Assembly (NCBI GenBank): GCA_016285355.1
Contig: JAEEQP010000003.1
Span: 1 to 64,000, forward strand
Reading direction: 5' to 3'
Origin: Bacteroidales bacterium
GTDB taxonomy: Bacteria > Bacteroidota > Bacteroidia > Bacteroidales > F082
DNA length: 64,000 nt
The notes below the pieces were generated by a model. It worked only from the letters and a program-made list of their open reading frames with translations. It made no database searches and was not told where the DNA came from. Numbering within the stretch: position 1 is the first letter of the stretch; each line of letters opens with the position of its first letter. Positions 28,510 to 32,681 of this stretch are shown here, one piece after another. The position numbers and the translations under genes are program-made.

Positions 28510-30123
28510 TTATTCTAATACTTTCCATTCACCTTTGGTTCTTGACCCAACACGCTTGATTTTATTCATCTTTTGCAACGATGACATATCACGTTTAATG
28601 GTTTTCAGCGAAACACTAAGTTTTTGTGCAAGACCTTCCATCGTAATGCTACCATCTTCCTTCAACAATGTCAAAATGGCTTCTTGCCGTTTAGTTAAGC
28701 CTGTTGAATCAAAGTTTTCCTTATGGACATTCTTTGGGTCATTCTTTAGGTCTTTCTTTGGGTCATTCTTTGGGTCATTTTTGTGGACATTCTTTGGGTC
28801 ATTAAACGATTCCGAAGCAATGCTATTTACATGAATATCAATATTTTCATACAACACATTCTTTGGGTCATTCTTTGGGTCATTCTTTGGGTCATCAAGC
28901 GTCTCAATCTCCAATCTGACCGTGGTTCTTTCAGGATTATAAGTCACTTGATAATGCGGTGTCACTCGCAAAATACTCTGCCAACTGTCAACAGCCTGCG
29001 GAATGCCCATACCAGCGCGTTCCACCTTGTCAATCAAAGCGAACATTTTCATAATGACGCTGTTTCGAGAGTCGGACACGCCACCGCTTAACGCCACTTT
29101 CAGACCAATACGAATATCGCCAGGATTGGAAAAAGAATAAAAATTCTTCGCTTTGATGATCACAACGCCCTGCCGTCCGTAATGGTCAGCATGTACCAAA
29201 GCATTTAGTAACAACTCGCGCAAGGCATCATGCAAAGGTGTCTCATCGATTCGAGAAGAGTTCCTCATGACAAAAGGCCTAGGAAGACTATCCGTCAACT
29301 TGGGGAAAACCTTGAAAAAGAAATCAAACAGGTTGCCGCTCCACTCGCCAGAACTGGAAACGATGCGATTGCTCCAGCGGGCATTGTCGTCCAATCGCTC
29401 TTGATAATCAAGAAAATAATTCGGAAACTCGCGCAAAATCTCATACTCGTAACCGAACATCAGCAAGCCCGCCACTGTCGGATGCATTTTTTGGTCCTCA
29501 TCAGATAGGCTCATTGCACCGATTCTGCGCATAAACAATTCATCATCAAGCCCAAGCCAAATATGATTGGGATGGAACGAAGCGAAACGGTTGCGATAAG
29601 CGTGGACACTCTCCATATCAAAAACCGTCATATCCATATTCGCCAAAACCCTCATATCGGCACCGACAATGGATGCGTCACGATACATAGCTGCCACCTG
29701 ATCCTTGTTGCAATGGTAATCGCCTTCACCATTGCGCCGATACGAGCCTCGCATTGGGTCAGTACCAACAAAAACAGGTTTCATCGTTCTGTCAGCCCGA
29801 GGCACATCGATTGCAATGACCGTCCTTCCACTTTGTTCAATCACCTGAACACATTGGTTCGTAAGGACATTCACGTTAATTTTCTGAGGATTATTGATGG
29901 TATTCCAAAAGTCAGAAACCAACTTTTCAGCATCATCAACCCCAATAATCTCCAAACTACGGTCTTCCTTCTCCTTCACTCCAAGCAAAATCACGCCACC
30001 ATCCGTATTGGCAAAGGCGGAATACGTCTCCCAAAGGCTGACCGGCAGTCCGTTGTGTGCCTGTTTGGCCTCAAGCCGATTGTCTTCGCGATATTGCTGG
30101 ATATTTTGCAGGTTGATTCTCAT
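28510..30123 (-). CDS. AlbA_2/Schlafen-type ATP-binding regulator with DPKN repeats
   Basis: This 537-residue protein starts with an AlbA_2 (Schlafen-like) domain (about 10-125: EAKQAHNGLPVSLWETYSAF, ANTDGGVILLGVKE), followed by a GHKL-like C-terminal helicase-associated region (ALRELLLNALVHADH, SNPGDIRIG) as in ATP-dependent DNA-binding relatives. Residues 412-475 are a linker of repeated D-P-K-N tetrapeptides encoded by a 12-bp unit. The end (about 480-537) is a winged helix-turn-helix (LTKRQEAILTLLKEDGSI, then LSVSLKTIKRDMSSL) of the DeoR type. A DNA-binding regulatory role is likely; the target is unknown. A -7 box is at 30140-30147 and 23-bp direct repeats lie 73 bp upstream of the start, possible operators. 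Confidence 0.83.
   Translation of the reverse strand: MRINLQNIQQYREDNRLEAKQAHNGLPVSLWETYSAFANTDGGVILLGVKEKEDRSLEIIGVDDAEKLVSDFWNTINNPQKINVNVLTNQCVQVIEQSGRTVIAIDVPRADRTMKPVFVGTDPMRGSYRRNGEGDYHCNKDQVAAMYRDASIVGADMRVLANMDMTVFDMESVHAYRNRFASFHPNHIWLGLDDELFMRRIGAMSLSDEDQKMHPTVAGLLMFGYEYEILREFPNYFLDYQERLDDNARWSNRIVSSSGEWSGNLFDFFFKVFPKLTDSLPRPFVMRNSSRIDETPLHDALRELLLNALVHADHYGRQGVVIIKAKNFYSFSNPGDIRIGLKVALSGGVSDSRNSVIMKMFALIDKVERAGMGIPQAVDSWQSILRVTPHYQVTYNPERTTVRLEIETLDDPKNDPKNDPKNVLYENIDIHVNSIASESFNDPKNVHKNDPKNDPKKDLKNDPKNVHKENFDSTGLTKRQEAILTLLKEDGSITMEGLAQKLSVSLKTIKRDMSSLQKMNKIKRVGSRTKGEWKVLE
28718..28900 (-). repeat. In-frame 12-bp repeat tract coding D-P-K-N
   Basis: Plus-strand TTCTTTGGGTCA-type units (minus-strand GACCCAAAGAAT) recur in two clusters, one near 28730-28805 and one near 28858-28895, with a non-repetitive stretch between. 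Units are 12 bp, so gain or loss keeps the frame and changes only linker length. Confidence 0.8.
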
Positions 30124-30289: not shown

Positions 30290-30414
30290 GTTCGGATTTG
30301 GAATCCGAACGCATTGAATATCAGCATTTGTAATGCGAAACTATTATCTTGTTTATTGTATTATCGGATTGCAAATCCTTATATACAACATGGCTGGATT
30401 TGCAAATCCAGCCG
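30290..30414. repeat. Chain of four small palindromes 3' of the SUMF1 gene
   Basis: GTTCGGATT/AATCCGAAC (30290-30310), GCATTTGTAATGC (30324-30336), GGATTGCAAATCC (30367-30379) and a perfect 22-bp palindrome centred on GGATTTGCAAATCC (30393-30414). They share their cores with the pair at 16078-16125. The last lies about 65 bp beyond the SUMF1 stop codon and could terminate its transcript. Confidence 0.6.
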
Positions 30415-30479
30415 AACGGGGGGCTGCCCTACCCTATTCCGCCATGGCATCTGTAGCTTATGGCCAGTACACAAGGGTA

Positions 30480-32681
30480 TCACTGGGGAAGAACAAGGCG
30501 AAAACCGATGCTGAAGTCCCTGATGTCGGGGTCGTCGCTGAACCGGATCGACACTCGGCAGTGCCTCGCGATGTTGCCCCAGCTACCGCCGCGCAGCACG
30601 CGGAAGGAGCCATTTGAAGGGCCTATAGGATTGGTTTGTGTACTGTTACTATAGCTATCGTACCAGTCCTGACACCACTCCCAAACATTGCCGCTCATGT
30701 CGTACAAGCCAAGCTCGTTAGGGTTTTTGCCCTTTACGGGGTGCGTTTTACTGCCACTGTTGTCGGTGTACCACGCCACACTGCCAATATTGCTACTTCC
30801 AGCATATTTGTATCCGTTACTCCTTTTCCCTCCTCGAGCGGCATACTCCCACTCGGCCTCAGTAGGCAGGCGGAATTGCTTGCCAGTAAATCGATTCAGT
30901 TTGGTGACAAATTCTTGTATATCATTCCAACTTACTCTATAGGCAGGATAATCGTTCCCTCTTCCATTATCATTTACCCAACCACCATTGTAGGAAGGTT
31001 CCGTTCCCATCACCGCCTTCCACAAGGCTTGGGTCACTTCCGTTTCACCCATATAATAATTGCTCAATGTAACGCTATGCACTGGTTTTTCATCACTATA
31101 TGCATCATTACCCTGCTCGGAGGTCGCACCCATTTGGAACGTGCCGCCTTCAACAAGTTTCATGGTGAAACTCACACCGTTCACAGTAAAGGTTTCCTCG
31201 TCCTTTGCCAAAGCCAGCATCTGTATGCTGTGGCTATAGCTACCGCTTTCGCTTACATTAATAGTATAGGTGTAATCGCGGTAATCAGTGGCGGTGGCCT
31301 TCAAACTGTGGCTGCCGTAAGTGAGCTGGTAAGTGCCAGTGGCTGAGCCTACCTTTTGTCCATCAATCTCCAATTGAGCATCGGGCACATTGCAAGTGAA
31401 CTGTATTTCCTTGCCGTTGCTCAGGGTGACTTGTATTTGTTTATGCTCACCTTTGCTTAAGGTAAAGGAATCAGTATAGTCGGCATAGCCGTCTTTGGTC
31501 AGCCTTATCTGGTGGCTGCCAATGAGCAAATCAGGCACTGCCTTCGGCGTAACCCCAATATCCTTACCATCGATATAGAGTTTGCAGAAGTTGGGGGTGC
31601 TTTCCACGTTCAACGAGCCATAGATGGGTTTGGGCAAGGGTAAAGGGATGGTACGTCCTGCCATGCTGGCGGTAATCTCTTGCGTGGTCATGCTGGTTTC
31701 ATGGTTAGCTTGCTTGCACTCTATCTTGTAAGTGCCGCTGCCCAAGCGTCCTGTCCAGGTGCGGGTACCTTTTTTCTCGTTGTTCACCCAGATTTCGGCT
31801 TCGGCATCCACTTTCAGGGTAACTTCTGCAAAGTCGGCTTCCAAAGTTGGATCAAGGCTGGTGGTCTCGTTGTCTTTAACAGTCACGGTTTCGGTGTAGG
31901 TGTCGTACATCTCCTTGGCGATGCGCACGGTGTGTTGCCCGCTCTTCAAAGCTTCGCTCTTGCAGGGCGCACGTCCAATGAGGGCATTGTCGACATAAAC
32001 GCTCGCACCTTGCAAGGCATCATTACCCGCCACCTCAATCCAGCCGAAGTTGGGACGCAACGTCACCGTCACTATTTCCGTGCCGTTGGGCTCGTCGATA
32101 GTCACGTTGCCGGCGTCGGTATGATAATTTGGCGCCTGCACACGCCACGAATAGGTGCCACAATTAGTCCACTTCATTGCACTGCCATCGGCACCCACTG
32201 TCCACAATTTGTCGTCCACTTCAAGGGTGGCATTGGCTGGAGAGATTTGGAAGGCAAGATACTGCTGCCGCACTTGGTTTTCAGGGTCGGGTCCTGGCTT
32301 CTTTGTGATGTCAAGCACCATCTCGTAAGTGCGTTCTGCTTCTATCTCAATAGGGTAGCGATAATCGCGCAGCACACCAAATTTCTGGTGCTTAATAGTA
32401 ATCTTTCTTGCTGCCCGAGGCACCCAAACCCACAATTCACCTGTTTCCTGCTTCGCGTCAACGATGCCCAAAGTGCCACCTTCAAAGGTAAAGCCTGTTT
32501 CTGTTGTCACTATTTTTATAAGTGCAGCTACATCGCCATTCTGGTCAATGCGTTTGCCTTCGAGACTCGATGCCGTCATGTCCATCGGCAGGGCTTTGAA
32601 GGACTTCACGGAGATACTTTGTCCGAGCAATGCACCCGCAGACAACATCAAAAAGGCAATCAAAAAGTATAGTTTTTTCAT
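30480..32681 (-). CDS. Exported PEGA-repeat protein with C-terminal SUMF1 (C-type-lectin-fold) domain; candidate DGR target
   Basis: This 733-residue exported protein has a signal peptide (MKKLYFLIAFLMLSAGALLG). Residues about 150-480 hold several PEGA-type repeats (VYVDNALIGRAPCKSEALKS, LYIDGKDIGVTPKAVPDL, LEIDGQKVGSATGTYQLTYG), which are surface beta domains. Residues 500-733 form a formylglycine-generating-enzyme-like (SUMF1) domain: VEGGTFQMG, GETEVTQALWKAVMG, FRLPTEAEWEYAARGG, GLYDMSGNVWEWCQDWY, RVLRGGSWG. The active-site Cys pair of true FGE enzymes is not evident, so binding is more likely than catalysis. The last 40 residues differ from the family's usual Asn-rich end at exactly the Asn positions, each codon ending in C (see the variable-region entry). 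Divergent from folP. Confidence 0.9.
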   Translation of the reverse strand: MKKLYFLIAFLMLSAGALLGQSISVKSFKALPMDMTASSLEGKRIDQNGDVAALIKIVTTETGFTFEGGTLGIVDAKQETGELWVWVPRAARKITIKHQKFGVLRDYRYPIEIEAERTYEMVLDITKKPGPDPENQVRQQYLAFQISPANATLEVDDKLWTVGADGSAMKWTNCGTYSWRVQAPNYHTDAGNVTIDEPNGTEIVTVTLRPNFGWIEVAGNDALQGASVYVDNALIGRAPCKSEALKSGQHTVRIAKEMYDTYTETVTVKDNETTSLDPTLEADFAEVTLKVDAEAEIWVNNEKKGTRTWTGRLGSGTYKIECKQANHETSMTTQEITASMAGRTIPLPLPKPIYGSLNVESTPNFCKLYIDGKDIGVTPKAVPDLLIGSHQIRLTKDGYADYTDSFTLSKGEHKQIQVTLSNGKEIQFTCNVPDAQLEIDGQKVGSATGTYQLTYGSHSLKATATDYRDYTYTINVSESGSYSHSIQMLALAKDEETFTVNGVSFTMKLVEGGTFQMGATSEQGNDAYSDEKPVHSVTLSNYYMGETEVTQALWKAVMGTEPSYNGGWVNDNGRGNDYPAYRVSWNDIQEFVTKLNRFTGKQFRLPTEAEWEYAARGGKRSNGYKYAGSSNIGSVAWYTDNSGSKTHPVKGKNPNELGLYDMSGNVWEWCQDWYDSYSNSTQTNPIGPSNGSFRVLRGGSWGNIARHCRVSIRFSDDPDIRDFSIGFRLVLPQ
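30510..30578 (-). other. Candidate DGR variable region in the SUMF1 gene
   Basis: Reading after G-G-S-W, the codons are GGC AAC ATC, then CAC, ATC, TTC AGC GAC GAC, ATC, and GAC TTC AGC, separated by fixed codons for A-R, C-R-V-S, R, P-D and R. In many SUMF1 proteins all thirteen of these positions are Asn. Here every one is NNC. Mutating only the two adenines of AAC codons in a template would give exactly this. The flanks (GGTAGCTGG upstream, ATCGGTTTTCGC downstream) are the expected conserved edges. No template repeat or reverse transcriptase was found in this window. Confidence 0.65.

What the first reader, a model, noticed from the sequence alone, without database searches (positions are those of the whole stretch)
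30510..30578. Codon signature of a diversity-generating retroelement target, with no reverse transcriptase nearby
Seen: the last 40 codons of the PEGA/SUMF1 gene have NNC at thirteen positions where comparable SUMF1 proteins usually have Asn (AAC): G, N, I, H, I, F, S, D, D, I, D, F, S. The codons between them are the usual fixed ones. Known: DGRs mutate adenines when copying a template repeat into a variable region at the 3' end of C-type-lectin-fold genes, and AAC codons in the template yield NNC in the target. Inference: this gene is, or was, diversified in trans by a DGR elsewhere in the genome, making a variable surface-binding protein with a PEGA stalk.
Basis: partly seen in the sequence, partly recalled or inferred. 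Interest (0 to 1): 0.82.

Follow-up and report, generated by a model that had tools for sequence, protein, structure and literature searches.

The report
Orphan target of a mutating retroelement
The tail of this gene, probably from a gut bacterium, was almost certainly rewritten by a retroelement that randomises protein binding sites; the machinery is not in this stretch, and a short sequence after the gene resembles an address label that may let such machinery find its targets.

Summary
Confirmed: the PEGA/SUMF1 gene (30480-32681, minus) has NNC at all thirteen named codons (30510-30578). Templates of real diversity-generating retroelements (DGRs) in relatives have Asn codons there: all thirteen sites in 5 of 12 templates, twelve in the other 7. 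A fourteenth site (30507-30509) is probably variable. In 22 homologues the thirteen sites average 2.9 bits of entropy, the other eleven columns 0.9. The best solved relative is a Treponema DGR variable protein. Some relatives' DGRs target PEGA-SUMF1 proteins (4 of 8 scanned). The window holds no reverse transcriptase or template and no whole genome is held, so a live trans target and a relic cannot be told apart. In 15 relatives the gene is missing from this spot. Unexpected: in 10 of 11 relatives' DGRs, DNA just after the variable region is complementary to DNA just after the template, with covarying pairs. The window gene has this element's end motif (30455-30460); its pairing partner is unknown. 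My searches found no description of such pairing.

The parts
30480..32681 (-). PEGA-SUMF1 gene, 733 aa: signal-peptide-like start, PEGA stalk, C-terminal SUMF1/FGE-type (C-type-lectin fold) head
   Evidence: Pfam PEGA E 1.7e-39 (3 stretches), FGE-sulfatase 507-730 E 3.8e-51. The signal peptide is my reading of the translation.
31212..32681 (-). PEGA stalk (about residues 1-490), shared with proteins that carry other heads
   Evidence: Homologue P0123 is identical up to residue 488 and then carries a different head; other domains on the same stalk in the listed homologues
30480..31190 (-). SUMF1 head with the variable region
   Evidence: Best PDB sequence match is the Treponema DGR variable protein, 2y3c, E 1.3e-44
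30483..30611 (-). Inferred variable region (VR); ends placed by homology with template/VR pairs in relatives
   Evidence: Template/VR pairs share sequence from about GGCTC to the stop-codon region
30510..30578 (-). Span of the thirteen variable NNC codons
30507..30509 (-). Probable fourteenth variable codon (ATC, Ile725)
   Evidence: Asn in 5 of 12 templates; entropy 3.14 bits in 22 homologues
30457..30482 (-). Candidate target address element D (stop codon plus 23 nt, ends TAAG, followed by CT)
   Evidence: End motif 22 nt after the first base of the stop; elements of this kind are complementary to the template 3' flank in relatives. TAAGCT occurs in this interval after only 2 of 669 other open frames. 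Best score against known template flanks is only 7: the window's own partner is not known.
28510..30123 (-). Schlafen/AlbA-type gene in the same insertion spot
   Evidence: Pfam SLFN_AlbA_2 E 6e-13; no match over 60 aa at E 1e-10 in the 15 neighbour stretches

Best explanation
The gene encodes a (probably exported) binding protein: a PEGA stalk with a SUMF1-type C-type-lectin head whose variable loop was rewritten by a DGR. A template repeat with Asn codons at the 13-14 sites is copied by an adenine-error-prone reverse transcriptase and the copy replaces the 3' end of this gene, so each AAC becomes NNC and the framework stays. Because neither template nor reverse transcriptase is in the 64 kb, this is a remote target (served in trans) or a stranded one. 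Shown here: the codon signature, hypervariability across homologues, homologous templates and DGRs with PEGA-SUMF1 targets in relatives, and the end motif of a target element after the stop. Inferred: the transfer from a template to this gene, ligand binding, export.
For: 13 of 13 NNC. Templates with Asn at these sites and almost only A differences to their own targets. Window tail against foreign templates: A changed far more often than other bases. Cis targets L170, L173, L177 and L178 are PEGA+SUMF1, 4 of 8 scanned. Entropy 2.93 versus 0.89 bits; 99% of residues at the sites are NNC-encodable against 75% in the rest of the heads. A DGR variable protein is the best solved relative. Target-element motif after the stop. 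In G111 a VR on another contig matches the template at 59 of 59 non-A positions with 18 of 31 A changed, so remote targets of this type exist if that genome is binned correctly.
Against: No template or RT in the window. None of SUMF1 type in the nearest relatives: 0 of 28 by strict template pattern; in a template DNA search of 30 genomes, 8 had a match, but only G001's was more than a 22-base piece, and that is a VR. The exact inferred template 24-mer is absent from viral contigs and genome contigs. Homologue P0122 differs by one residue outside the VR and has the same VR. A search for the template flank predicted from the window's element found only a chance match.
Confidence: 0.88

Rival explanations
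1. Relic or hitch-hiker: the gene was diversified elsewhere or earlier, arrived here as a target alone (or lost its DGR), and is now frozen. This is a rival on activity, not on DGR origin.
For: The gene and its Schlafen-like neighbour occupy a spot (DHPS-DUF1599) where none of 15 relatives has them; 14 of the 15 keep both flanking genes. No SUMF1-type template in the nearest relatives. P0122 has an identical VR. T. denticola precedent: a target gene read as a leftover, or acquired alone (PMC4891356, passages).
Against: The target-element motif is still present. P0123, with the same stalk, carries a different head and VR, so diversity exists in the group. Genomes made of many contigs may miss template loci.
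Confidence: 0.42
2. Ordinary positive selection on a lectin-like binding loop, without any DGR.
For: Binding loops can evolve fast (general knowledge).
Against: It does not predict NNC at every site, or templates elsewhere with A at the varying positions and almost only A differences to their targets.
Confidence: 0.03
3. Codon-usage artefact: a C-rich third position makes NNC look special.
For: C is the commonest third base in the gene, 228 of 720 other codons.
Against: Matched residues use NNC at 48% (143 of 298); 13 of 13 has p about 4e-5 to 7e-5; homologue variability does not depend on codon bias.
Confidence: 0.01

Closest known systems
Treponema denticola TvpA and its remote target genes (PDB 2y3c; PMC4891356)
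   Same: SUMF1-like lectin-fold variable protein, VR at the C-terminus, seven VRs for one template and a target read as leftover or acquired alone (passages); best solved match, E 1.3e-44
   Different: Here the head sits on a PEGA stalk in a Bacteroidales-like genome; no RT or template found; the target element was not compared
Bordetella phage BPP-1 DGR (mtd/TR/avd/brt)
   Same: Adenine-specific template-to-VR copying; an element just downstream of VR is needed for efficient homing (PMC3240598, passages)
   Different: BPP-1 uses a self-complementary GC-rich hairpin. In the SUMF1-type DGRs here the downstream element is complementary to the template's 3' flank. BPP-1 itself scores 13 (p 0.009) against 16-26 in ten of eleven here.
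Trans-acting DGRs of Thiohalocapsa PB-PSB1 (PMC10907252)
   Same: Remote targets matching a distant template at all non-A sites (passages); same logic as G111 C41 here
   Different: Different targets and organism; no pairing element in the passages read
Modular DGR targets of the global survey (PMC8144416)
   Same: Multi-domain targets with a C-terminal lectin-fold VR; the authors suggest intragenic recombination of domains (passages)
   Different: The word PEGA is not in its main text (supplements not seen); P0001/P0123 is a concrete candidate head swap

Membership tests
DGR target (variable protein) | VR at the 3' end of a C-type-lectin-fold gene | tested here: met
   By sequence. The predicted structure of the tail was of low confidence.
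DGR target (variable protein) | Differences from a template concentrated at template adenines | tested here: met
   Only against templates of relatives: L173 19/35 A versus 7/58 non-A; L176 16/31 versus 8/62; L177 15/31 versus 9/62. Own template unknown.
DGR target (variable protein) | Excess variation at the template-A codons among relatives | tested here: met
   2.93 versus 0.89 bits, 22 tails aligned without gaps, 4 dropped. Between species, not within one population.
DGR target (variable protein) | Target-site element just after VR | tested here: inconclusive
   End motif and spacing present; pairing partner unknown, best score with known flanks 7; a BPP-1-type hairpin was not searched for.
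Complete DGR in the window | Reverse transcriptase with DGR-type motif nearby | tested here: not met
   tblastn with five RTs
Complete DGR in the window | Template repeat nearby | tested here: not met
Complete DGR in the window | RT and template elsewhere in the same genome | not testable with these tools
   No whole genome held
Formylglycine-generating enzyme (true FGE) | Both active-site cysteines in the RGGS...C...C motif (their role is recalled, not from a call) | tested here: not met
   Read from the alignments: only the second Cys has a counterpart (C708); the first falls at the variable positions

The most novel reading that the evidence does not exclude
SUMF1-type chromosomal DGRs of this bacterial group find their targets through a nucleic-acid address: about 26-34 nt after the variable region are complementary to the stretch right after the template, in register from the template's last base. 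The template RNA (or its cDNA) would anneal there, perhaps with the target strand priming copying at the template end. Any gene that acquires a lectin-fold tail plus this address could be diversified in trans, and the window's orphan gene keeps such an address (30457-30482), predicting a template that ends ...CCCCAG followed by CTTATGGCC.
Probability: 0.5. Interest if true: 0.82.

Novelty: new variant of a known kind. Interest (0 to 1): 0.62.

Why it matters
How the DGR copy enters its target is called incompletely understood in a 2026 paper (PMC12875486, passages). A covarying pairing between the template's flank and the target's downstream DNA gives a concrete, swappable determinant to test, and a way to recognise remote and orphan targets from sequence alone. 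It could also link an orphan target such as this one to its template.

Tried and rejected
Exact AAC-template 24-mer: 0 in viral contigs and genome contigs. Strict template pattern: 0 of 28 near genomes. SUMF1-type template pattern: 0 in viral contigs, 10 of 173 family genomes, 2 of 393 order genomes. VR DNA of the window: matches in 15 of 149 family genomes, among the near group only in G001.

Predicted template junction CCCCAGCTTATGGCC: 1 of 173 genomes, inside sequence without a template. The same prediction for the orphan VR of G001 (up to 2 mismatches) found its own element and two two-mismatch sites, 3 matches against 5 for the reversed control. So the pairing idea has not yet found a new template.

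DGR pairs near RTs of the close group (L020, L046, L051, L053, L054, and the weaker L056) have templates of other types, and their flanks show no complementarity (scores 5-7).

L178 is the exception among 11 cis DGRs: score 7, own element third in rank; by eye it has a 7-nt match between two small loops. L060 (G125) has a template-type flank in direct orientation and no element.

Motif test, 52 distinct tails: motif after 11 of 12 VR-like tails (the window is one of the 12), 6 of 6 ambiguous, 5 of 22 'non', 0 of 12 templates. The Fisher test there used only the first and third class. The 5 'non' positives (L065, L068, L070, L083, L171) look by eye like variable regions with other codons, decay or a deletion, but I did not move them.

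Structure prediction: stalk confident, most of the variable tail pLDDT below 50, so no fold search was run. The palindrome core GGATTTGCAAATCC occurs once in the window, so it is no local repeat family.

Full report
WHAT IS THERE. The gene at 30480-32681 (minus) encodes 733 aa: a signal-peptide-like start (my reading), PEGA repeats and a C-terminal FGE-sulfatase/SUMF1 domain. Its tail reads RGGSW GNI AR H CRVS I R FSDD PD I R DFSI GFRLVLPQ. The sites were chosen after the fact, so I looked for independent evidence.

HOMOLOGUES. Searching with residues 1-500 gave 653 proteins, of which the best 120 were listed. Among these (P0122 left out as the same protein) my motif found 26 C-terminal SUMF1-type tails; 22 align without gaps and were counted, 4 (P0124, P0127, P0144, P0236) were dropped for other spacing. 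SUMF1 heads whose tail does not fit the motif, such as P0126, P0128 and P0133, were not counted. Mean entropy is 2.93 bits at the 13 sites and 0.89 at the other 11 columns (Mann-Whitney p = 2e-4). One of those eleven, just before GFR, has 3.14 bits and is probably a fourteenth variable site. At the 13 sites 99% of residues can be encoded by NNC, against 75% in the rest of the heads.

P0122 has one change, outside the tail. P0123 is identical up to residue 488, then its head differs at 69 of the 236 positions from residue 498 on, 8 of them gaps. Its head is closest to that of P0186 (82% without the tail), while the window head is closest to P0130 apart from P0122 (80%). This looks like a head swap. 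Listed homologues join the same stalk to SUMF1 and to quite different domains.

TEMPLATES AND REVERSE TRANSCRIPTASES IN RELATIVES. No whole genome is held for the window. A genome-contig scan gave 14 loci, most titled Bacteroidales, Bacteroidia or Bacteroidetes MAGs, two with deer in the isolate name, and one Glassbacteria. A SUMF1-template pattern occurs at 12 sites in 10 of 173 genomes of the family group of G001 (0 for the reversed control) and in 2 of 393 of the order group. At those 12 sites (the 12 loci), 9 have an open frame nearby with the DGR-type motif IGNLTSQ; tblastn also finds RT sequence beside L172 (with a stop inside) and L174; none was seen on the 10-kb L084 contig. Two of these RTs were scanned and match Pfam RVT_1. 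Template and cis target differ almost only at A: L176 13 A and 0 others, L177 15 and 0, L173 12 and 1. Four of the 8 targets scanned are PEGA plus SUMF1 (L170, L173, L177, L178); L177 and L173 align with the window protein over nearly full length at 42-43%.

Against these foreign templates the window tail differs mostly at A: 19 of 35 A and 7 of 58 others for L173 (all seven at third positions), 16/31 and 8/62 for L176, 15/31 and 9/62 for L177; Fisher p = 2e-5, 1e-4 and 7e-4. The other nine templates have 9-18 non-A mismatches. The best solved relative of the head is a DGR variable protein of Treponema denticola (2y3c, E 1.3e-44), ahead of FGEs (E 4.5e-28).

THE MACHINERY IS NOT HERE. Five DGR RTs give only chance tblastn matches in the 64 kb, and no template-like copy exists. 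By the neighbour protein P0242 the closest genomes are G129, G089, G109 and G034, 81-85%. The near group lacks a SUMF1-type template (0 of 28; 30 genomes by DNA search, 8 with a match, all 22-base pieces except a VR in G001). RVT_1 proteins are found in 15 of 24 near genomes; the DGRs I could show among them have other templates. In the genus group, RTs at 44% identity or more occur in 6 of 99 genomes (G082, G100, G106, G111, G113, G121). The G001 orphan VR (L002) has 13 of 13 NNC and the element motif, but no template was found in G001. In G111 a VR on contig C41 matches the template on C34 at 59 of 59 non-A bases with 18 of 31 A changed; two more remote VRs differ at 8 and 10 non-A bases. 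So remote targets of this type exist if G111 is binned correctly.

LOCATION. In 14 of 15 relatives the DHPS and DUF1599 genes both lie in the fetched neighbourhood (in L112 DUF1599 was not found), and none of the 15 shows the PEGA-SUMF1 or Schlafen-like gene there (matches over 60 aa at E 1e-10). The gap holds other frames in some: one of about 530 aa in L104-L106 and a lipoprotein-like frame with a FISUMP match below the curated cut-off in L111. The window's pair is therefore a local insertion, or was lost repeatedly elsewhere.

AN ADDRESS ELEMENT. Comparing sequence beyond the template with that beyond the VR, I saw that the DNA just after the VR is close to the reverse complement of the DNA just after the template. 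In the first ten cis pairs nine score 16-26 (2000 shuffles: 99th percentile 10, maximum 14; same-orientation control 6-9). An eleventh pair, L191, scores 19 (maximum of 500 shuffles 16). Across eleven, the own element ranks first in 10; the summed score is 202 against a permutation mean of 93 and maximum of 160 in 20,000. For the ten positive systems I set the register by the element's end motif, so flank positions 1-4 pair largely by construction; the test is positions 5-9, which pair in 10 of 10 with three or four pair types each. That is covariation between stretches hundreds of bases apart or more. The template flanks share an invariant GGAT core (13 templates). Three further templates (L172, L174, L190) had no cis VR within my thresholds and are not in these counts. 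L178 is the exception. Six DGR pairs of other types do not show it (scores 5-7), and BPP-1 gives a weak 13 (p 0.009).

The element ends TAAG or TGAG followed by C; the motif starts 20-34 nt after the first base of the stop. Among 52 distinct SUMF1-type tails in fetched loci it follows 11 of 12 VR-like tails (the window among them), 6 of 6 ambiguous ones, 5 of 22 others and 0 of 12 templates. After other long open frames it occurs in 12 of 669, and TAAGCT in 2 of 669. The window has TAAGCT at position 22 (30455-30460), the same spacing as the G001 orphan. The window's element shows no match to any known template flank (best score 7), as expected if its own template is unknown, so only end motif and spacing support it.

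HOW IT PROBABLY WORKS. Shown by sequence: a DGR-type variable tail, and covarying complementarity in relatives. Inferred: the template RNA or its cDNA anneals to the target just after the VR. The pairing starts at the template's last base, which would suit a primer placed there, but nothing here separates priming from recognition. A rival is that the element is recopied from the flank at each event, which would also keep them matched. BPP-1 needs a self-complementary hairpin at this place (PMC3240598, passages); how the cDNA enters the target is described as incompletely understood (PMC12875486, passages). I saw no description of this pairing in the listings or in the passages; no paper was read whole, and the library omits most subscription journals, so it may be known.

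VERDICT. The reading as a DGR target is well supported; live versus stranded is open. Targets away from or without their DGR are known (T. denticola, PMC4891356; Thiohalocapsa, PMC10907252), so the gene itself is a new member of a known kind. The address element, if it holds, is a new variant.

Noticed in passing
window 42310-63993 (minus): A frame of 7227 codons, reaching almost to the window edge, Gly-rich with repeated GGG-containing motifs and a tail that looks by eye like a secretion-sorting domain; no Pfam match in three pieces.
   Followed up: partly
window 30300-30420: Between the two inserted genes lie palindromes, for example GGCTGGATTTGCAAATCCAGCC at 30392-30413; its core occurs once in the window.
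   Followed up: partly
window 28708-28907: The 3' part of the Schlafen-like gene contains tandem 12-nt units of the TTCTTTGGGTCA type.
   Followed up: no
G003:C6 27152-53489 (L183, L184): Nine long open frames with the same PEGA-type stalk motif and different C-terminal parts, several Sel1-like by eye.
   Followed up: partly
L060 (G125:C36): A variable-region-like tail followed by a template-type flank in direct orientation and without the complementary element; no RT of this type in that genome.
   Followed up: partly
L178 (G082:C39): The one cis DGR without the long complementary element; by eye both sides have a small hairpin whose loops share a 7-nt complementary stretch.
   Followed up: partly
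L204 (phage BPP-1): The prototype DGR shows a weak, GC-rich complementarity between template flank and VR downstream DNA (score 13, p 0.009, uncorrected).
   Followed up: partly
L111 6963-8360: In G002 the same DHPS-DUF1599 gap holds a lipoprotein-like frame with a weak Fib_succ/FISUMP match below the curated cut-off.
   Followed up: partly
L020, L046, L051, L053, L054: DGR template/VR pairs of non-SUMF1 types in near relatives, with only A differences in the scored 70 bases.
   Followed up: partly
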